64,000 nucleotides of DNA. It comes from Candida dubliniensis CD36 (lineage: Eukaryota; Ascomycota; Pichiomycetes; Serinales; Debaryomycetaceae). The number at the start of each line of letters is the position of its first letter. The first letter of the stretch is position 1. Where the stretch lies: assembly GCF_000026945.1 (NCBI RefSeq), contig NC_012862.1, forward strand, positions 1,418,501-1,482,500. The letters run 5' to 3'. Below the pieces are notes generated by a model. It was given only the letters and a program-made list of their open reading frames with translations, was not told the origin of the DNA and ran no database searches. A program made the translations under genes and the position numbers. Below, in pieces: positions 34,496 to 49,951 of the stretch.

Positions 34496-37400
34496 TTAAA
34501 ACAATCCGAATATTATGTAAAATGCAATCATCCAAATAGAATACTTGGAAGTTGATCCCAAATTATCAGACATAGACAAACTTGGTGGAGTATTGGTAGA
34601 AGTTTCACGTTGTTCATTTATTGTCGTTGAACCTTGCTTTAAATACTCGCCTTGTTGCACAGTGGTAAGTTTAGTATCAGTAGGGTCGGTGACAACTGTA
34701 TTAGTTGACTCCAAATTAAGTGTGTTTATTCCAAAACCTGGATACTTGTATCTACCACTTGATGTACTTCCTGAAGTAATTTTTGAATTGGTTCGAGCAG
34801 ACTCAGCTCCAAGAGATTTCGAATAATCTGACTTGTGTACATCTGAGACAAATCCTCCTATCGGCGATTCCGAAATCTTAGCTGGCACAACTTGGTCATT
34901 TTGGTTGTTTGCAGTCGTGACAGAAGGAAAACTAGTAACAAGAATATTACTTTCAATTGTTGCACCAGTTTTATTTTGGTCAAATTCAGTATTAGTAACA
35001 GTCATTCCCGGGCCTGCATCTTGCAAATTAGTACTTTGACCAGAACTCTTCATTAATGACTGATTCTCATTAGTGTTTTTGTTTTTCTCTATACTAATAC
35101 TAATTGCATCAGCTAGTACAGATACTGAAGACGGCTTCGAGGGCAAGTCGCTTCCGGATGTTGGCATATCGTTTGCCTCCATCACATCCGAAAATGCTAT
35201 TACAGATTCTGAAGATACTAGTTCTCTGGATGTTGTAAATAGTTTCACCTCAGATTCGGATGACGAGGACATTGACGTATATGAATCACCCAAAGATTCT
35301 TTCAGTATGGAAATACTGTAATCTGTAGATGCAATTAAGGAAAGACCTCCATTTGATTCTTCACTCGATGCAGCATCAAAACTCAGTAACCCAGTAACAT
35401 GCGAAGGATATACAGATACTGGAAATGAGCTACTACCTACTGCAGCGCCTGTGCTCTTCAACAGTTGGCCATGTTCATTAGTCATGAGTGAAGAAGACCT
35501 CTGACTTAAAAAGGTGACTTCATCAACAGTAGCCGGCAGAGTTAATTCTATCTCCTTTCTACCTGCAACCGAAGATGATTCTGTATCTTCCGTCAAAATA
35601 TCACCTGAAATCAATATCCTTGACACCGTGTCAATGTCACTATTTTTAAAAGACAATTCATTAACTTCATACGTGGAGGTACTCTCATAACCAGCACTGC
35701 TCAAGCTAGGAGCCCAATACAGTAAGGCAGAATCAACCGATGTTGAAATAAATAATGACAAAGAGCCATCACTTTTGCTAACCTCCATCAACGACCCAGC
35801 CACACTGGAAACCAAAACAGAAGATTCCTCAGGCAATTGCGAAATAGTTGTAACTGCCTCATCAATAACCGAAAATGACACAAATCTTGTTGAGAACGTG
35901 GATGAAACCGAGTCGCTGCTTTCTTCACTTGAAAATGTACCAATAGTGGATTCACGTGACTCACTTGATTCTTCTGAACTTGGCATTATCAGAATACTGG
36001 ATCTCTCTTTAGTTGACGATACAGTAGCACTCATACTAGATTCGCTGCCACTAGTAGAAACCTCTTCTGACGTAGTGTAGAAATCAGAAATATCACTCAC
36101 AGCAGTAACCAGCACCCTTGATTCACTAGTTTCATCTCCAGCAATGGATGACAGAGCACCATCCGAGACCAGTGCCTCAGTCGAATTCGTATAACGTGTG
36201 GAACTCATTCTGGAACTCATTCTGGAACTCATTCTGGAACTCATTCTGGATGGAGACACATATTTTGTTGAGAACGTGGATGGAACCGAGTCGCTGCTTT
36301 CTTCACTTGAAAATGTACCAATAGTGGATTCACGTGACTCACTTGATTCTTCTGAACTTGGCATTATCAGAATACTGGATCTCTCTTTAGTTGACGATAC
36401 AGTAGCACTCATACTAGATTCACTGTCACTAGTAGAAACCTCTTCTGCCGTAGTGTAGAAATCAGAAATATCACTCACAGCAGTAACCAGCACCCTTGAT
36501 TCACTAGTTTCATCTCCAGCAATGGATGACAGAGCACCATCCGAGACCAGTGCCTCAGTCGAATTTGTATAACGTGTGGAACTCATTCTGGAACTCATTC
36601 TGGAACTCATTCTGGAACTCATTCTGGAACTCATTCTGGATGGAGACACATATTTTGTTGAGAACGTGGATGGAACCGAGTCGCTGCTTTCTTCACTTGA
36701 AAATGTACCAATAGTGGATTCACGTGACTCACTTGATTCTTCTGAACTTGGCATTATCAGAATACTGGATCTCTCTTTAGTTGACGATACAGTAGCACTC
36801 ATACTAGATTCACTGTCACTAGTAGAAACCTCTTCTGCCGTAGTGTAGAAATCAGAAATATCACTCACAGCAGTAACCAGCACCCTTGATTCACTAGTTT
36901 CATCTCCAGCAATGGATGACAGAGCACCATCCGAGACCAGTGCCTCAGTCGAATTTGTATAACGTGTGGAACTCATTCTGGAACTCATTCTGGAACTCAT
37001 TCTGGAACTCATTCTGGATGGAGACACATATTTTGTTGAGAACGTGGATGGAACCGAGTCGCTGCTTTCTTCACTTGAAAATGTACCAATAGTGGATTCA
37101 CGTGACTCACTTGATTCTTCTGAACTTGGCATTATCAGAATACTGGATCTCTCTTTAGTTGACGATACAGTAGCACTCATACTAGATTCGCTGCCACTAG
37201 TAGAAACCTCTTCTGACGTAGTGTAGAAATCAGAAATATCACTCACAGCAGTAACCAGCACCCTTGATTCACTAGTTTCATCTCCAGCAATGGATGACAG
37301 AGCACCATCCGAGACCAGTGCCTCAGTCGAATTTGTATAACGTCTGGAACTCATTCTGGAACTCATTCTGGAACTCATTCTGGATGGAGACACATATTTT

Positions 37401-40400
37401 GTTGAGAACGTGGATGGAACCGAGTCGCTGCTTTCTTCACTTGAAAATGTACCAATAGTGGATTCACGTGACTCACTTGATTCTTCTGAACTTGGCATTA
37501 TCAGAATACTGGATCTCTCTTTAGTTGACGATACAGTAGCACTCATACTAGATTCGCTGCCACTAGTAGAAACCTCTTCTGACGTAGTGTAGAAATCAGA
37601 AATATCACTCACAGCAGTAACCAGCACCCTTGATTCACTAGTTTCATCTCCAGCAATGGATGACAGAGCACCATCCGAGACCAGTGCCTCAGTCGAATTT
37701 GTATAACGTGTGGAACTCATTCTGGAACTCATTCTGGAACTCATTCTGGATGGAGACACATATTTTGTTGAGAACGTGGATGGAACCGAGTCGCTGCTTT
37801 CTTCACTTGAAAATGTACCAATAGTGGATTCACGTGACTCACTTGATTCTTCTGAACTTGGCATTATCAGAATACTGGATCTCTCTTTAGTTGACGATAC
37901 AGTAGCACTCATACTAGATTCGCTGCCACTAGTAGAAACCTCTTCTGACGTAGTGTAGAAATCAGAAATATCACTCACAGCAGTAACCAGCACCCTTGAT
38001 TCACTAGTTTCATCTCCAGCAATGGATGACAGAGCACCATCCGAGACCAGTGCCTCAGTCGAATTTGTATAACGTGTGGAACTCATTTTGGAACTCATTC
38101 TGGATGGAGACACATATTTTGTTGAGAACGTGGATGAAACCGAGTCGCTGCTTTCTTCACTTGAAAATGTACCAATAGTGGATTCACGTGACTCACTTGA
38201 TTCTTCTGAACTTGGCATTATCAGAATACTGGATCTCTCTTTAGTTGACGATACAGTAGCACTCATACTAGATTCGCTGCCACTAGTAGAAACCTCTTCT
38301 GACGTAGTGTAGAAATCAGAAATATCACTCACAGCAGTAACCAGCACCCTTGATTCACTAGTTTCATCTCCAGCAATGGATGACAGAGCACCATCCGAGA
38401 CCAGTGCCTCAGTCGAATTTGTATAACGTGTGGAACTCATTCTGGAACTCATTCTGGAACTCATTCTGGATGGAGACACATATTTTGTTGAGAACGTGGA
38501 TGGAACCGAGTCGCTGCTTTCTTCACTTGAAAATGTACCAATAGTGGATTCACGTGACTCACTTGATTCTTCTGAACTTGGCATTATCAGAATACTGGAT
38601 CTCTCTTTAGTTGACGATACAGTAGCACTCATACTAGATTCGCTGCCACCAGTAGAAACCTCTTCTGACGTAGTGTAGAAATCAGAAATATCACTCACAG
38701 CAGTAACCAGCACCCTTGATTCACTAGTTTCATCTCCAGCAATGGATGACAGAGCACCATCCGAGACCAGTGCCTCAGTCGAATTTGTATAACGTGTGGA
38801 ACTCATTCTGGAACTCATTCTGGAACTCATTCTGGATGGAGACACATATTTTGTTGAGAACGTGGATGGAACCGAGTCGCTGCTTTCTTCACTTGAAAAT
38901 GTACCAATAGTGGATTCACGTGACTCACTTGATTCTTCTGAACTTGGCATTATCAGAATACTGGATCTCTCTTTAGTTGACGATACAGTAGCACTCATAC
39001 TAGATTCGCTGCCACTAGTAGAAACCTCTTCTGACGTAGTGTAGAAATCAGAAATATCACTCACAGCAGTAACCAGCACCCTTGATTCACTAGTTTCATC
39101 TCCAGCAATGGATGACAGAGCACCATCCGAGACCAGTGCCTCAGTCGAATTTGTATAACGTGTGGAACTCATTCTGGAACTCATTCTGGAACTCATTCTG
39201 GATGGAGACACATATTTTGTTGAGAACGTGGATGGAACCGAGTCGCTGCTTTCTTCACTTGAAAATGTACCAATAGTGGATTCACGTGACTCACTTGATT
39301 CTTCTGAACTTGGCATTATCAGAATACTGGATCTCTCTTTAGTTGACGATACAGTAGCACTCATACTAGATTCGCTGCCACCAGTAGAAACCTCTTCTGA
39401 CGTAGTGTAGAAATCAGAAATATCACTCACAGCAGTAACCAGCACCCTTGATTCACTAGTTTCATCTCCAGCAATGGATGACAGAGCACCATCCGAGACC
39501 AGTGCCTCAGTCGAATTTGTATAACGTGTGGAACTCATTCTGGAACTCATTCTGGATGGAGACACATATTTTGTTGAGAACGTGGATGGAACCGAGTCGC
39601 TGCTTTCTTCACTTGAAAATGTACCAATAGTGGATTCACGTGACTCACTTGATTCTTCTGAACTTGGCATTATCAGAATACTGGATCTCTCTTTAGTTGA
39701 CGATACAGTAGCACTCATACTAGATTCGCTGCCACTAGTAGAAACCTCTTCTGACGTAGTGTAGAAATCAGAAATATCACTCACAGCAGTAACCAGCACC
39801 CTTGATTCACTAGTTTCATCTCCAGCAATGGATGACAGAGCACCATCCGAGACCAGTGCCTCAGTCGAATTTGTATAACGTGTGGAACTCATTCTGGAAC
39901 TCATTCTGGAACTCATTCTGGATGGAGACACATATTTTGTTGAGAACGTGGATGGAACCGAGTCGCTGCTTTCTTCACTTGAAAATGTACCAATAGTGGA
40001 TTCACGTGACTCACTTGATTCTTCTGAACTTGGCATTATCAGAATACTGGATCTCTCTTTAGTTGACGATACAGTAGCACTCATACTAGATTCGCTGCCA
40101 CTAGTAGAAACCTCTTCTGACGTAGTGTAGAAATCAGAAATATCACTCACAGCAGTAACCAGCACCCTTGATTCACTAGTTTCATCTCCAGCAATGGATG
40201 ACAGAGCACCATCCGAGACCAGTGCCTCAGTCGAATTTGTATAACGTGTGGAACTCATTCTGGAACTCATTCTGGAACTCATTCTGGATGGAGACACATA
40301 TTTTGTTGAGAACGTGGATGGAACCGAGTCGCTGCTTTCTTCACTTGAAAATGTACCAATAGTGGATTCACGTGACTCACTTGATTCTTCTGAACTTGGC

Positions 40401-43400
40401 ATTATCAGAATACTGGATCTCTCTTTAGTTGACGATACAGTAGCACTCATACTAGATTCGCTGCCACCAGTAGAAACCTCTTCTGACGTAGTGTAGAAAT
40501 CAGAAATATCACTCACAGCAGTAACCAGCACCCTTGATTCACTAGTTTCATCTCCAGCAATGGATGACAGAGCACCATCCGAGACCAGTGCCTCAGTCGA
40601 ATTTGTATAACGTGTGGAACTCATTCTGGAACTCATTCTGGATGGAGACACATATTTTGTTGAGAACGTGGATGGAACCGAGTCGCTGCTTTCTTCACTT
40701 GAAAATGTACCAATAGTGGATTCACGTGACTCACTTGATTCTTCTGAACTTGGCATTATCAGAATACTGGATCTCTCTTTAGTTGACGATACAGTAGCAC
40801 TCATACTAGATTCGCTGCCACTAGTAGAAACCTCTTCTGACGTAGTGTAGAAATCAGAAATATCACTCACAGCAGTAACCAGCACCCTTGATTCACTAGT
40901 TTCATCTCCAGCAATGGATGACAGAGCACCATCCGAGACCAGTGCCTCAGTCGAATTTGTATAACGTGTGGAACTCATTTTGGAACTCATTCTGGATGGA
41001 GACACATATTTTGTTGAGAACGTGGATGAAACCGAGTCGCTGCTTTCTTCACTTGAAATTGTACCAATAGTGGATTCACGTGACTCACTTGATTCTTCTG
41101 AACTTGGCATTATCAGAATACTGGATCTCTCTTTAGTTGACGATACAGTAGCACTCATACTAGATTCGCTGCCACTAGTAGAAACCTCTTCTGACGTAGT
41201 GTAGAAATCAGAAATATCACTCACAGCAGTAACCAGCACCCTTGATTCACTAGTTTCATCTCCAGCAATGGATGACAGAGCACCATCCGAGACCAGTGCC
41301 TCAGTCGAATTTGTATAACGTGTGGAACTCATTCTGGAACTCATTCTGGAACTCATTCTGGATGGAGACACATATTTTGTTGAGAACGTGGATGGAACCG
41401 AGTCGCTGCTTTCTTCACTTGAAAATGTACCAATAGTGGATTCACGTGACTCACTTGATTCTTCTGAACTTGGCATTATCAGAATACTGGATCTCTCTTT
41501 AGTTGACGATACAGTAGCACTCATACTAGATTCGCTGCCACCAGTAGAAACCTCTTCTGACGTAGTGTAGAAATCAGAAATATCACTCACAGCAGTAACC
41601 AGCACCCTTGATTCACTAGTTTCATCTCCAGCAATGGATGACAGAGCACCATCCGAGACCAGTGCCTCAGTCGAATTTGTATAACGTGTGGAACTCATTC
41701 TGGAACTCATTCTGGATGGAGACACATATTTTGTTGAGAACGTGGATGGAACCGAGTCGCTGCTTTCTTCACTTGAAAATGTACCAATAGTGGATTCACG
41801 TGACTCACTTGATTCTTCTGAACTTGGCATTATCAGAATACTGGATCTCTCTTTAGTTGACGATACAGTAGCACTCATACTAGATTCGCTGCCACTAGTA
41901 GAAACCTCTTCTGACGTAGTGTAGAAATCAGAAATATCACTCACAGCAGTAACCAGCACCCTTGATTCACTAGTTTCATCTCCAGCAATGGATGACAGAG
42001 CACCATCCGAGACCAGTGCCTCAGTCGAATTTGTATAACGTGTGGAACTCATTCTGGAACTCATTCTGGATGGAGACACATATTTTGTTGAGAACGTGGA
42101 TGAAACCGAGTCGCTGCTTTCTTCACTTGAAAATGTACCAATAGTGGATTCACGTGACTCACTTGATTCTTCTGAACTTGGCATTATCAGAATACTGGAT
42201 CTCTCTTTAGTTGACGATACAGTAGCACTCATACTAGATTCGCTGCCACCAGTAGAAACCTCTTCTGACGTAGTGTAGAAATCAGAAATATCACTCACAG
42301 CAGTAACCAGCACCCTTGATTCACTAGTTTCATCTCCAGCAATGGATGACAGAGCACCATCCGAGACCAGTGCCTCAGTCGAATTTGTATAACGTGTGGA
42401 ACTCATTTTGGAACTCATTCTGGATGGAGACACATATTTTGTTGAGAACGTGGATGAAACCGAGTCGCTGCTTTCTTCACTTGAAATTGTACCAATAGTG
42501 GATTCACGTGACTCACTTGATTCTTCTGAACTTGGCATTATCAGAATACTGGATCTCTCTTTAGTTGACGATACAGTAGCACTCATACTAGATTCGCTGC
42601 CACTAGTAGAAACCTCTTCTGACGTAGTGTAGAAATCAGAAATATCACTCACAGCAGTAACCAGCACCCTTGATTCACTAGTTTCATCTCCAGCAATGGA
42701 TGACAGAGCACCATCCGAGACCAGTGCCTCAGTCGAATTTGTATAACGTGTGGAACTCATTCTGGAACTCATTCTGGAACTCATTCTGGATGGAGACACA
42801 TATTTTGTTGAGAACGTGGATGGAACCGAGTCGCTGCTTTCTTCACTTGAAAATGTACCAATAGTGGATTCACGTGACTCACTTGATTCTTCTGAACTTG
42901 GCATTATCAGAATACTGGATCTCTCTTTAGTTGACGATACAGTAGCACTCATACTAGATTCGCTGCCACTAGTAGAAACCTCTTCTGACGTAGTGTAGAA
43001 ATCAGAAATATCACTCACAGCAGTAACCAGCACCCTTGATTCACTAGTTTCATCTCCAGCAATGGATGACAGAGCACCATCCGAGACCAGTGCCTCAGTC
43101 GAATTTGTATAACGTGTGGAACTCATTCTGGAACTCATTCTGGAACTCATTCTGGATGGAGACACATATTTTGTTGAGAACGTGGATGGAACCGAGTCGC
43201 TGCTTTCTTCACTTGAAAATGTACCAATAGTGGATTCACGTGACTCACTTGATTCTTCTGAACTTGGCATTATCAGAATACTGGATCTCTCTTTAGTTGA
43301 CGATACAGTAGCACTCATACTAGATTCGCTGCCACTAGTAGAAACCTCTTCTGACGTAGTGTAGAAATCAGAAATATCACTCACAGCAGTAACCAGCACC

Positions 43401-46400
43401 CTTGATTCACTAGTTTCATCTCCAGCAATAGATGACAGAGCACCATCCGAGACCAGTGCCTCAGTCGAATTTGTATAACGTGTGGAACTCATTCTGGAAC
43501 TCATTCTGGATGGAGACACATATTTTGTTGAGAACGTGGATGAAACCGAGTCGCTGCTTTCTTCACTTGAAAATGTACCAATAGTGGATTCACGTGACTC
43601 ACTTGATTCTTCTGAACTTGGCATTATCAGAATACTGGATCTCTCTTTAGTTGACGATACAGTAGCACTCATACTAGATTCGCTGCCACCAGTAGAAACC
43701 TCTTCTGACGTAGTGTAGAAATCAGAAATATCACTCACAGCAGTAACCAGCACCCTTGATTCACTAGTTTCATCTCCAGCAATGGATGACAGAGCACCAT
43801 CCGAGACCAGTGCCTCAGTCGAATTTGTATAACGTGTGGAACTCATTCTGGAACTCATTCTGGAACTCATTCTGGAACTCATTCTGGATGGAGACACATA
43901 TTTTGTTGAGAACGTGGATGGAACCGAGTCGCTGCTTTCTTCACTTGAAAATGTACCAATAGTGGATTCACGTGACTCACTTGATTCTTCTGAACTTGGC
44001 ATTATCAGAATACTGGATCTCTCTTTAGTTGACGATACAGTAGCACTCATACTAGATTCGCTGCCACTAGTAGAAACCTCTTCTGACGTAGTGTAGAAAT
44101 CAGAAATATCACTCACAGCAGTAACCAGCACCCTTGATTCACTAGTTTCATCTCCAGCAATGGATGACAGAGCACCATCCGAGACCAGTGCCTCAGTCGA
44201 ATTTGTATAACGTGTGGAACTCATTCTGGAACTCATTCTGGAACTCATTCTGGAACTCATTCTGGATGGAGACACATATTTTGTTGAGAACGTGGATGGA
44301 ACCGAGTCGCTGCTTTCTTCACTTGAAAATGTACCAATAGTGGATTCACGTGACTCACTTGATTCTTCTGAACTTGGCATTATCAGAATACTGGATCTCT
44401 CTTTAGTTGACGATACAGTAGCACTCATACTAGATTCGCTGCCACTAGTAGAAACCTCTTCTGACGTAGTGTAGAAATCAGAAATATCACTCACAGCAGT
44501 AACCAGCACCCTTGATTCACTAGTTTCATCTCCAGCAATGGATGACAGAGCACCATCCGAGACCAGTGCCTCAGTCGAATTTGTATAACGTGTGGAACTC
44601 ATTCTGGAACTCATTCTGGATGGAGACACATATTTTGTTGAGAACGTGGATGGAACCGAGTCGCTGCTTTCTTCACTTGAAAATGTACCAATAGTGGATT
44701 CACGTGACTCACTTGATTCTTCTGAACTTGGCATTATCAGAATACTGGATCTCTCTTTAGTTGACGATACAGTAGCACTCATACTAGATTCGCTGCCACT
44801 AGTAGAAACCTCTTCTGACGTAGTGTAGAAATCAGAAATATCACTCACAGCAGTAACCAGCACCCTTGATTCACTAGTTTCATCTCCAGCAATGGATGAC
44901 AGAGCACCATCCGAGACCAGTGCCTCAGTCGAATTTGTATAACGTGTGGAACTCATTCTGGAACTCATTCTGGAACTCATTCTGGATGGAGACACATATT
45001 TTGTTGAGAACGTGGATGGAACCGAGTCGCTGCTTTCTTCACTTGAAAATGTACCAATAGTGGATTCACGTGACTCACTTGATTCTTCTGAACTTGGCAT
45101 TATCAGAATACTGGATCTCTCTTTAGTTGACGATACAGTAGCACTCATACTAGATTCGCTGCCACCAGTAGAAACCTCTTCTGACGTAGTGTAGAAATCA
45201 GAAATATCACTCACAGCAGTAACCAGCACCCTTGATTCACTAGTTTCATCTCCAGCAATGGATGACAGAGCACCATCCGAGACCAGTGCCTCAGTCGAAT
45301 TTGTATAACGTGTGGAACTCATTCTGGAACTCATTCTGGATGGAGACACATATTTTGTTGAGAACGTGGATGGAACCGAGTCGCTGCTTTCTTCACTTGA
45401 AAATGTACCAATAGTGGATTCACGTGACTCACTTGATTCTTCTGAACTTGGCATTATCAGAATACTGGATCTCTCTTTAGTTGACGATACAGTAGCACTC
45501 ATACTAGATTCGCTGCCACTAGTAGAAACCTCTTCTGACGTAGTGTAGAAATCAGAAATATCACTCACAGCAGTAACCAGCACCCTTGATTCACTAGTTT
45601 CATCTCCAGCAATGGATGACAGAGCACCATCCGAGACCAGTGCCTCAGTCGAATTTGTATAACGTGTGGAACTCATTCTGGAACTCATTCTGGAACTCAT
45701 TCTGGATGGAGACACATATTTTGTTGAGAACGTGGATGGAACCGAGTCGCTGCTTTCTTCACTTGAAATTGTACCAATAGTGGATTCACGTGACTCACTT
45801 GATTCTTCTGAACTTGGCATTATCAGAATACTGGATCTCTCTTTAGTTGACGATACAGTAGCACTCATACTAGATTCGCTGCCACTAGTAGAAACCTCTT
45901 CTGACGTAGTGTAGAAATCAGAAATATCACTCACAGCAGTAACCAGCACCCTTGATTCACTAGTTTCATCTCCAGCAATGGATGACAGAGCACCATCCGA
46001 GACCAGTGCCTCAGTCGAATTTGTATAACGTGTGGAACTCATTCTGGAACTCATTCTGGATGGAGACACATATTTTGTTGAGAACGTGGATGGAACCGAG
46101 TCGCTGCTTTCTTCACTTGAAAATGTACCAATAGTGGATTCACGTGACTCACTTGATTCTTCTGAACTTGGCATTATCAGAATACTGGATCTCTCTTTAG
46201 TTGACGATACAGTAGCACTCATACTAGATTCACTGTCACTAGTAGAAACCTCTTCTGCCGTAGTGTAGAAATCAGAAATATCACTCACAGCAGTAACCAG
46301 CACCCTTGATTCACTAGTTTCATCTCCAGCAATGGATGACAGAGCACCATCCGAGACCAGTGCCTCAGTCGAATTTGTATAACGTGTGGAACTCATTCTG

Positions 46401-49400
46401 GAACTCATTCTGGAACTCATTCTGGATGGAGACACATATTTTGTTGAGAACGTGGATGGAACCGAGTCGCTGCTTTCTTCACTTGAAAATGTACCAATAG
46501 TGGATTCACGTGACTCACTTGATTCTTCTGAACTTGGCATTATCAGAATACTGGATCTCTCTTTAGTTGACGATACAGTAGCACTCATACTAGTTTCACT
46601 GTCACTAGTAGAAACCTCTTCTGACATTGAAACATCACTCACAGTAGCAGGCGGTTCGATGGTAACCAGACTGAAAGCCGCAAGAGTTGAAGACCAAGGA
46701 TAGTATGATGATTCCTTATCTGAGGAATATATTGGTATTATAGTATTCTGCGTATTGCTAAAAAAATTGGAATCGGACTCAAACTCGGTTCTTGTGACAG
46801 TAGGGTTGTGTGGTTCTTTAGCAATGACCGAGTCAGTTCCCTCTGGACTGTTTATGATGGTAGTGGTAGGAGCATATGATTCTGACCAAAATTCAGTTGT
46901 AGTCACAGTAGGGTTGTGTGGTTCTCTGATAATCACACTGTCAGTTCCGTCTGGACTGTTTATGAGGGTAGTGGTAGTAGCATACGATTCTGTCCAAAAC
47001 TCGGTGGTAGTCACAGTAGGGTTGTGTGGTTCTTTGATAATCACACTGTCAGTTCCCTCTGGACTGTTTATGAGGGTCTCTGTAGTAGCATATGATTCTG
47101 ACCAAAATTCAGTTGTAGTCACAGTTGGGTTGTGTGGTTCTTTAACAATAACCGAGTCAGTTCCCTCTGGACTGTTTATGATGGTAGTGGTAGTAGCATA
47201 TGATTCTGACCAAAATTCAGTTGTAGTCACAGTAGGGTTGTGTGGTTCTTTAACAATAACCGAGTCTGTGCCCTCTGGACTGTTTATGATGGTAGTGGTA
47301 GTAGCATACGATTCTGACCAAAATTCAGTTGTAGTCACAGTTGGGTTGTGTGGTTCTCTGATAATCACACTGTCTGTGCCTTCTGGGTTGTTCATGAGGG
47401 TCTCTGTAGTAGCATATGATTCTGACCAAAATTCAGTTGTAGTCACAGTTGGGTTGTGTGGTTCTTTGATAATCACACTGTCTGTGCCTTCTGGGTTGTT
47501 CATGAGGGTCTCTGTAGTAGCATATGATTCTGTCCAAAATTCAGTTGTAGTCACAGTTGGGTTGTGTGGTTCTTTAACAATAACCGAGTCAGTTCCCTCT
47601 GGACTGTTTGTGATGGTAGTGGTAGTAGCATACGATTCTGACCAAAACTCGGTTCTTGTGACAGTAGGGTTGTGTGGTTCTCTGATAATCACACTGTCTG
47701 TGCCCTCTGGACTGTTTATGATGGTCTCTGTAGTAGCATATGATTCTGACCAAAACTCGGTTCTTGTGACAGTAGGGTTGTGTGGTTCTCTGATAATCAC
47801 ACTGTCTGTGCCCTCTGGACTGTTTATGATGGTAGTGGTAGTAGCATATGATTCTGACCAAAACTCGGTGGTAGTCACAGTAGGGTTGTGTGGTTCTTTA
47901 ACAATAACCGAGTCTGTGCCCTCTGGACTGTTTATGATGGTAGTGGTAGTAGCATATGATTCTGACCAAAATTCAGTTGTAGTCACAGTTGGGTTGTGTG
48001 GTTCTTTAACAATAACCGAGTCAGTTCCCTCTGGACTGTTTATGATGGTAGTGGTAGTAGCATATGATTCTGACCAAAACTCGGTGGTAGTCACAGTAGG
48101 GTTGTGTGGTTCTTTAACAATAACCGAGTCTGTGCCCTCTGGACTGTTTATGATGGTAGTGGTAGTAGCATACGATTCTGACCAAAATTCAGTTGTAGTC
48201 ACAGTTGGGTTGTGTGGTTCTTTAACAATAACCGAGTCAGTTCCCTCTGGACTGTTTATGATGGTAGTGGTAGTAGCATATGATTCTGACCAAAACTCGG
48301 TGGTAGTCACAGTAGGGTTGTGTGGTTCTTTAACAATAACCGAGTCTGTGCCCTCTGGACTGTTTATGATGGTAGTGGTAGTAGCATACGATTCTGACCA
48401 AAATTCAGTTGTAGTCACAGTTGGGTTGTGTGGTTCTTTAACAATAACCGAGTCAGTTCCCTCTGGGTTGTTTGTGATGGTAGTGGTAGCAGCATACGAT
48501 TCTGACCAAAATTCAGTTGTAGTCACAGTTGGGTTGTGTGGTTCTTTGATAATCACACTATCAGTTCGGAGAGGCGCTTGTGAATATATCTCCGTAGTTA
48601 GGTAATTGTTTGACCAAAATTCAGTTGTAGTCACAGTAGGGTTGGGATATGGAATTTGTACAAGAACAGTATCTACCAAGTTGGTATCATCGGAGTAAGT
48701 GGTTGTTCCTATTGTTGATTCTAGCCAATATGTACTTATTGTAGTCACTGTGTGTTGTGGAACATCAATAAATACAGTGGCGGTGTCACCAATGATAGCT
48801 CTCTTTGTATAATATCTAGTATAAAAACCATGATGAGAAGTTGTAACCGTAGTGGTGGGTATTGGCTCTAACACTAGAACGGTTTTGGTCTTCTGCACTA
48901 GGGAAATGAAGGGTAATGTGATTGTTTCCGTAATGGAATCAAGATATGTAGATGTAGTCCGAACCAAATCCGCTCCGTTAACTAAAGCTTTGTCATATAG
49001 AATAGACTGAGAAAAGAAACTTGTGAAAGGTAAGGATGTGAAAAGGCCATTAACACAAGTAAACTCATTTGTATACTGTACGTAAAAAGGTTTTGTTGTT
49101 GGTATTTGAACGATCGCGTCCACAAAAGGTCGGTAACCTGCAGGAATTTCTTGAAACTCAATATAAAGAGCACGTGATGTGCAACTTCTAGTATGATCGA
49201 AGGGAACAGAAGATACGGGCATACTCCAATCATTTATTTCATTGGTTATACCCACATGTATAGAAGAACAGTCAATTTCAAAATCATCATCAGCAAATGA
49301 AAAACCTAATTTACCCAGCTGATAACCCGTGAGACATGGAGTGGACATGACAAGATTAGTCATTTTATCAAGTGACGCAAAAAGTCTTTGACCCACAACG

Positions 49401-49951
49401 AGACCATAAGCAAGATCTCTTCGAGGAGCAAAATATGCAGTTGTAGAAAGTTGATTATCACCATCAAAAAATGTTACACTATTGTACCCACCTGAAAAGC
49501 ATTTCGAGTCCTTTAGCGTAGATTCGGAACCCGAACCTCCAACATTGAATACAATCGGCAAGATAATGTCTCCAAAAACATTGGTATTCTCAGTCAACTC
49601 ATTGGTCACTGTACACTTCAAACTGGAAAAAGTTTTGGAATCTTCACCTGCATCAAAGTTACATGTGGCATATGGAATAGAATTGGAAGTTAACTGTACC
49701 GATGATTGATACGTCATGAATTTATACACACAGGGCATGACTAATGTAAAAGTATCATCTGGACTGGCCATAGTACCATCCAAAACCCATTCCATTTGAG
49801 CATTAGCAGTAAGAGTAGGAATTTCTTCGTAACGGGCTCTGTATGTAAATGACCATATTAATGAATCAAATTTAGTAAAGACTCCAGTAATTTCTTTAGA
49901 TATGACCGTTGTGATCAAAGCCAACAAATATGGAAGATATAATTTGTTCAT
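34496..49951 (-). CDS. ALS7: Giant ALS-family GPI-anchored cell-surface adhesin, probably ALS7-like
   Basis: One uninterrupted frame of 5151 codons. A signal peptide (1-18) leads into the Als ligand-binding region (about 19-330), with ITGVF at its start. Counted from the predicted mature end, Lys59 (VMPCVYKF) matches the invariant cavity lysine of Als adhesins. A Thr-rich region (about 330-433) with the aggregation-prone stretch KTVLVLEP follows. Next come about 17 copies of the 36-aa Als repeat (about 434-1054), then 30 Ser/Thr/Glu-rich units of 118-130 aa (about 1109-4690). The non-repetitive Ser/Thr tail ends in a hydrophobic GPI signal ([17 protein letters not shown]). Als proteins mediate adhesion to host and abiotic surfaces. 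ALS family is certain. The ALS7 assignment rests on the chromosome-3-type neighbours and the hypervariable second repeat array, so it is tentative. It is far longer than the roughly 1500-2300 aa I recall for C. albicans Als7. Confidence 0.93.
35880..46625 (-). repeat. Array of 30 near-identical 354-390-bp coding units with a nested 12-bp minirepeat
   Basis: Thirty copies of the segment [12 protein letters not shown]...SESSM, with 29 copies of the RMSS-to-SEEVST segment between them. Measured spacing is 354, 366, 378 or 390 bp, always 354 + 12n. The extra length is due only to the number of 12-bp units encoding RMSS (2 to 5 copies; rarely KMSS). Units are almost identical even at silent sites, apart from a few recurring variants (SGSESS/GGSESS, SVPS/SVSS, GTFS/GTIS). 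Each unit contains the octamer TCACGTGA and four CTG codons. Confidence 0.95.
46785..48650 (-). repeat. About 17 copies of the 108-bp (36-aa) Als tandem repeat
   Basis: The repeated motif [19 protein letters not shown] plus [16 protein letters not shown] recurs every 108 bp. The first, N-terminal copy is divergent ([10 protein letters not shown]), and the last is cut into by the stretch [10 protein letters not shown]. Variants (SESY/TESY, IIN/LMN, VKE/IRE/IKE) are mixed along the array. In Als proteins these repeats form Thr-rich beta domains that extend the adhesin and help aggregation. The long plus-strand ORF over this array is only its antisense shadow. Confidence 0.95.

What the first reader, a model, noticed from the sequence alone, without database searches (positions are those of the whole stretch)
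35880..46625. About 117 CTG codons concentrated in one adhesin repeat array; the unit has no other Leu codon
In every unit the four Leu-like positions (SSILIMP, TEALVSD, DGALSSI, SRVLVTA) are all CTG; no TTA, TTG or other CTN codon occurs. Thirty copies of the first and 29 of the other three give about 117 CTG codons. CTG-clade yeasts read CUG mostly as Ser with a few percent Leu, and CUG is generally avoided. So the array is really Leu-free Ser-rich protein. Each adhesin molecule would carry a random handful of Leu residues in a surface-exposed stalk. That is a built-in source of surface variation within one clone.
Basis: partly seen in the sequence, partly recalled or inferred. Interest (0 to 1): 0.78.

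Follow-up and report, generated by a model that had tools for sequence, protein, structure and literature searches.

The report
CUG-rich repeat stalk in yeast adhesin
A yeast surface protein carries 117 CUG codons because one short stretch with four of them was copied about 29 times; they are very probably read as serine, so this looks like repeat amplification rather than a device that makes the cell surface vary.

Summary
The count is exact. The ORF at 34496-49951 (-; 5151 aa, code 12) has an array at 35882-46621 of 29 full units and one partial unit, with 117 CTG (30/29/29/29 at the four named positions) and no TTA, TTG or other CTN codon. The gene is an ALS7 orthologue; the genome fits Candida dubliniensis CD36. 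The proposed mechanism is not supported. (1) The 117 are four sites copied. Per unit, 4 CTG among 42-46 Ser codons is not unusual against 45 background ORFs (P 0.147-0.185), though nominally high against 17 wall genes (P 0.039; stalks 0.021). (2) Units differ at 10 of 330 core positions, so invariant CTGs say little. (3) Published mass spectrometry on C. dubliniensis CBS 7987 (= CD36) reported no ambiguity towards Leu, but covered about 10% of CUG positions and may have missed wall proteins. (4) The surface-variation idea is already published and contested. In C. albicans-type ALS7 the unit is present once or cleanly absent between direct repeats, so unequal recombination is the likely cause. 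What may be new is the scale: 124 CUGs in one gene against a published maximum of 38 in C. albicans.

The parts
34496..49951 (-). ALS7-type adhesin ORF, 5151 aa under code 12, stop included
49898..49951 (-). N-terminal hydrophobic stretch, probable signal peptide (aa 1-18, boundary by eye)
   Evidence: by eye; no predictor run
49055..49792 (-). NT-Als domain (PF11766)
   Evidence: PDB relatives
46772..48661 (-). Region of 36-aa ALS repeats (PF05792), no CTG codon
35882..46621 (-). Array of 29 full units (118-130 aa) and one partial unit; 117 CTG, 0 Leu codons
35882..36067 (-). Partial last unit (62 aa) with one CTG
34499..35881 (-). Ser-rich C-terminal region (aa 4691-5151) with 5 CTG and 33 Leu codons; hydrophobic GPI-type tail by eye

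Best explanation
It is the Ser-rich, presumably O-mannosylated stalk of a GPI-type Als7 adhesin. An ancestral unit lay between direct repeats (SSESRES...TFSTRY). It carried two CTG codons shared with C. albicans; the C. dubliniensis line has two more. The unit was then amplified about 29-fold by unequal recombination and homogenised. CUG is read as Ser, and the 117 CTGs are passengers. What would vary between strains is the repeat number and so the stalk length. Shown: the counts, the homogeneity of units, copy states 0, 1 and 29 in the proteins compared, the tRNA features. Inferred: the stalk role, mannosylation, recombination as mechanism, Ser decoding in this very protein, variation between strains of C. 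dubliniensis.
For: Four sites repeated 30/29/29/29. The 29 full units differ at 10 of 330 core positions, none in a CTG codon, and in the copy number of a 12-bp minisatellite (2-5); 15 full-unit types. Of 7 ALS7-type proteins printed, 5 carry the homologous segment once and 2 (P0013, P0015) lack it with one copy of the direct repeat left. L/S differences between two kinds of translation mark 16 sites in C. albicans ALS7, read here as CTG, among them TET.VSD and VV.SSV; the other two unit positions are Ser in both translations and Pro. Per-unit CTG share is within background. tRNA with CAG, G33, G37, G73. MS of C. dubliniensis CBS 7987: 466 supported CUG spectra, a single ambiguous position (27 Ser, 1 Asp); at 2.96% Leu about 14 Leu spectra would be expected if spectra were independent.
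Against: CTG share in the unit is nominally above other wall genes (P 0.021-0.039). CTG sites in the unit have unusually hydrophobic neighbours (exact P 0.0003, 0.0062, 0.0139 for 1, 2, 3 residues either side), which neutral passengers need not show; n = 4 and chosen after looking. The MS data cover about 10% of CUG positions, in yeast form, and its authors discuss that wall proteins might be absent from lysates. The L/S reading of C. albicans CTG sites is indirect, as no C. albicans DNA was seen.
Confidence: 0.85

Rival explanations
1. One reading: CUG is read partly as Leu, so each stalk carries a random set of Leu residues and the surface varies within a clone.
For: The tRNA carries G37, which as m1G37 is listed as a LeuRS element (PMC8178436). 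C. albicans work reports 2.96% Leu, which would give 3.5 Leu per array. More Leu at CUG raised adherence in C. albicans, and Leu at two CUG sites of Als3 altered its function (Miranda 2013 as told in PMC8178436).
Against: MS on CBS 7987 reports no ambiguity towards Leu. Tandem copying accounts for the number. No expression evidence for this gene was found here; C. albicans Als7 is described as naturally low in abundance and without documented adhesive function (PMC4791367 passages).
Confidence: 0.05
2. CTG is kept in the unit by selection for something other than Leu, for example slow decoding that helps secretion or folding of a long Ser-rich stalk.
For: Nominal excess over other wall genes (P 0.021-0.039).
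Against: No excess over background ORFs (P 0.147-0.185) nor over TCG (P 0.264). Several other wall stalks have no or almost no CTG (5 of 17 have none).
Confidence: 0.05
3. The copy number is partly an assembly artefact, so the true gene has a different number of CTGs.
For: A 10.7-kb array of near-identical 354-390-bp units is hard to assemble; no second assembly could be examined.
Against: 15 full-unit types occur in a scattered order, with no repeated block of exactly identical units longer than 3; the frame is open throughout.
Confidence: 0.1

Closest known systems
Candida albicans ALS7 and its hypermutable repeats (Zhang 2003, seen only as a citation)
   Same: Orthologous gene: NT region 80% identical, C-terminal region 53%; same unit in the same place; inferred CTG at two of the four positions.
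   Different: C. albicans-type proteins have the unit 0 or 1 times, some with expanded VASES/VTSES-type repeats inside it; here the whole unit is present 29 times.
CUG ambiguity as a generator of surface variation in C. albicans (2007 and 2013 papers; contested by PMC8645108)
   Different: Here 124 CUGs in one gene, by tandem copying; MS on this species reports no ambiguity towards Leu.
Als3 and Als9 NT domains (PDB 4le8, 4lee, 2y7l and others)
   Same: NT domain matches at E 3.3e-87 to 1.3e-83.
   Different: Only the NT domain (query residues 19-313) is matched; the stalk is not.

Membership tests
ALS adhesin family | NT-Als domain (PF11766) | tested here: met
   288.6 and 285.6 bits, cut-off 25.
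ALS adhesin family | 36-aa tandem repeats (PF05792) | tested here: met
   17 stretches; 108-bp period, 16.2 copies.
ALS adhesin family | Secretion signal and GPI-anchor signal | tested here: inconclusive
   Hydrophobic ends seen by eye; no predictor run.
ALS7 orthologue | Closest named relative is C. albicans ALS7 at both ends | tested here: met
   PMC8712946 pairs CaAls7 with CdAls86150 (passages).
ALS7 orthologue | Synteny with C. albicans ALS7 | not tested
   Only seen: a second ALS gene about 35 kb away on C4.
CTG-clade decoding (CUG = Ser) | tRNA(CAG) with the Ser discriminator G73 and G33 | tested here: met
   positions read by eye. ARAGORN labels it Leu because it applies the bacterial code.
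CTG-clade decoding (CUG = Ser) | CTG at conserved Ser columns | tested here: met
   codon 212, Ser codon in 5 of 6 paralogues, Phe in 1; only this one column was tested.
CUG-ambiguity surface diversifier | Leu at CUG above ordinary mistranslation | not testable with these tools
   Published MS on this species says no (PMC8645108); whether array peptides were among those seen is unknown.
CUG-ambiguity surface diversifier | CUG over-represented among Ser codons of the unit | tested here: inconclusive
   P 0.147-0.185 against background ORFs; P 0.021-0.039 against wall genes.

The most novel reading that the evidence does not exclude
Three of the four CUG sites have the three most hydrophobic neighbourhoods of the 38 Ser positions in the unit core (I_I, V_V, A_V; the fourth, A_S, ranks 13th; exact P 0.0003). 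If Leu were inserted there even occasionally, for example under stress, each event would extend a hydrophobic patch in a long stalk with 117 chances. The array would then act as an amplifier that turns a low, regulated mischarging rate into surface stickiness.
Probability: 0.04. Interest if true: 0.75.

Novelty: new member of a known kind. Interest (0 to 1): 0.3.

Why it matters
It shows that a striking codon count in a repeat protein can come from copying alone, so enrichment should be tested per unit and not per copy. It also offers a practical test case: each protein molecule would present the same CUG-bearing peptides about 29 times, so wall peptides of this strain could test, in a surface adhesin, the open dispute over Leu at CUG.

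Tried and rejected
(a) CTG sites of wall proteins having hydrophobic neighbours in general. Within-gene shuffles gave P 0.0103 for 17 wall genes with ends trimmed (n = 113) and 0.0117 for their stalks (n = 68); ALS only 0.028, Hyphal_reg_CWP only 0.055, N-terminal domains 0.39. After removing similar contexts it was P 0.21 (60 CTG against 1210 other Ser contexts). ALS7 outside the array: P 0.23, n = 7. Background ORFs show the reverse (more hydrophilic, P 0.0003, n = 94). (b) Finding the unit in other proteins: one search scored none at E <= 0.001 among 3335 candidates, but only proteins of 0.55 to 1.75 times 5151 aa were candidates. (unit DNA against the own genome) was not scored, so copies elsewhere in the genome are not excluded. 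(c), a guessed DNA pattern of the unit, found nothing because the codons I guessed were wrong. (d) tRNA patterns: one search missed (wrong spacing), one search gave one hit; a search for a tRNA-Leu(CAG) was not made. (e) Expression: passages of PMC3626586 show no ALS7 or ALS6 in its main text. (f) The PF14759 hit on the 36-aa repeats looks spurious. (g) A wider background: see below; it rests on 26 ORFs from five 10-kb stretches and 19 other window ORFs, taken mechanically (>= 150 aa, some may not be genes).

Full report
What is there. The ORF on the minus strand at 34496-49951 encodes 5151 aa under code 12. It has an NT-Als domain (PF11766) matching the solved Als3 and Als9 domains, then 36-aa ALS repeats, then the array in question, then a Ser-rich C-terminus with a GPI-type tail by eye. 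The genome (14,618,422 bases, 8 contigs) shows 7 ALS genes, the number PMC8712946 gives for C. dubliniensis CD36 (passages). The NT region is 80% identical to a protein named C. albicans ALS7, and that paper pairs CaAls7 with CdAls86150 (passages).

The count. In 35882-46621 there are 29 full units and one partial unit with 117 CTG codons, no other Leu codon and 1168 other Ser codons. CTG is 9.1% of Ser codons in the array. In the rest of the gene it is 1 of 40 (NT), 0 of 63 (36-aa repeats), 1 of 13 (linker) and 5 of 99 (C-terminus).

Is it more than chance. The copies are not independent. The 29 full units have 13 distinct cores and vary at 10 of 330 core positions, none in a CTG codon, where 12 of 330 positions would be expected to take about 0.4 of the 10. 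So the test is per unit: 4 CTG in 42-47 Ser codons. Against 45 ORFs (26 from five 10-kb stretches on five contigs, 19 other window ORFs; 94 CTG of 1929 Ser codons, 4.87%) P is 0.147-0.185 for n = 42, 44, 46. Three other window ORFs have a similar share (9.6%, 9.1%, 8.8%). Against 17 wall genes (6 ALS, 11 of the Hyphal_reg_CWP family; 118 of 3855) the unit is nominally rich: P 0.039, and 0.021 against their stalks (68 of 2720). One of the 17, L034, has 11.1% in its stalk. Lack of Leu is not remarkable: those stalks average 2.14% Leu, and the longest Leu-free run is 723 aa.

Origin. ALS7-type proteins from elsewhere suggest how it arose. Of the 7 printed (7 of the 8 hits; the eighth, P0002, carries the unit once), 5 carry the unit once between two copies of SSESRES...TFSTRY, and 2 (P0015, named C. 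africana, and P0013, unnamed) have a single copy of that direct repeat and no unit. This is what recombination between direct repeats gives. One of the five, P0005, has an NT region only 50% identical to this gene and may be a chimera. Comparing P0001 and P0002 with P0003 and P0004 gives 16 L/S sites in each of the three comparisons made, read here as CTG under two codes; PMC1991585 counts 18 CUGs in ALS7, the most of the ALS genes it lists (passages). Two of the four unit positions are inferred CTG in both species; of the others one is Ser in both translations and one is Pro in C. albicans. Outside the array, 4 of the 6 CTG sites compared (212, 4744, 4805, 4856) are also inferred CTG in C. 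albicans; 4830 and 4883 are not. CTG 1095 was not compared.

Decoding. The genome has a tRNA with anticodon CAG and, by eye, G33, G37 and G73. PMC8178436 lists G73 as a SerRS element, m1G37 as a LeuRS element and G33 as lowering leucylation (first part of section 5 read). CTG 212 aligns with Ser codons in 5 of 6 paralogues. PMC8645108 (abstract, Discussion, one Results section and passages read) measured C. dubliniensis CBS 7987, which a passage of PMC3626586 equates with CD36: 232 CUG positions covered, 121 supported, 466 supported spectra, one ambiguous position (27 Ser, 1 Asp), and no ambiguity towards Leu. At 2.96% about 14 Leu spectra would be expected if spectra were independent. Limits: about 10% of CUG positions covered, yeast form only, lysates that may lack wall proteins, and the figure with the full split by amino acid was not visible to me. 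The other side: PMC8178436 and PMC2246281 report 2.96% Leu in C. albicans and effects on adhesion, so the dispute stands for C. albicans.

Prior art. Variation by CUG ambiguity was proposed in 2007 (PMC1991585, PMC2246281; passages) and for the cell surface in 2013 (Miranda, mBio; known here only through PMC8178436 and reference lists). PMC2246281 reports 1 to 38 CUGs per C. albicans gene; 124 here is over three times that. Whether it is the maximum of the C. dubliniensis genome was not tested; in the 45 background ORFs the most is 12 and in the 17 wall genes 17. A search for 'CUG codons' with 'ALS7' found 3 papers. Searches for C. dubliniensis ALS repeats (15 of 29 listed; 12 of 57 listed) showed no title or abstract start on this array. 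Zhang 2003 and Jackson 2009 were not held, so I cannot say it is unreported. C. albicans Als7 itself is described as low in abundance and without documented adhesive function, with more adhesion after its deletion (PMC4791367 passages), so calling this protein an adhesin rests on its family.

A loose end. In the unit core, CTG sites rank 1, 2, 3 and 13 of 38 Ser positions by hydrophobicity of the two neighbours (mean Kyte-Doolittle 3.05 against -0.39 for all Ser; exact P 0.0003, falling to 0.0062 and 0.0139 with wider flanks). The trend in other wall stalks is not significant after removing similar contexts (P 0.21) and is reversed in background ORFs (P 0.0003). It may reflect origin from Pro, Leu, Val or Met codons by single changes (inference).

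Verdict.

Noticed in passing
window 46755-48605 (+): A 616-aa open frame (code 12) lies antisense to the 36-aa repeats; probably a by-product of the repeats.
   Followed up: no
window 35882-46621: A 12-bp minisatellite (encoding RMSS) varies from 2 to 5 copies inside the full units, a second level of length variation nested in the array.
   Followed up: partly
P0013, P0015: Two ALS7 proteins (one named C. africana) lack the unit, leaving one copy of the flanking direct repeat.
   Followed up: yes
L022 8993-10000 (+) and L024 6933-8099 (-): ORFs with the same N-terminus lie beside two different ALS genes on C7, suggesting a segmental duplication.
   Followed up: no
P0005: An ORF from an unnamed source joins an N-terminal half only 50% identical to this gene to an ALS7 C-terminus; recombinant allele or assembly chimera.
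   Followed up: no
L034 168-3848 (-): A Hyphal_reg_CWP-family gene has 17 CTG, with 11.1% of its stalk Ser codons being CTG.
   Followed up: partly
45 background ORFs (L037-L041 and window): CTG codons sit in more hydrophilic surroundings than other Ser codons of the same ORFs (P 0.0003, n = 94).
   Followed up: partly
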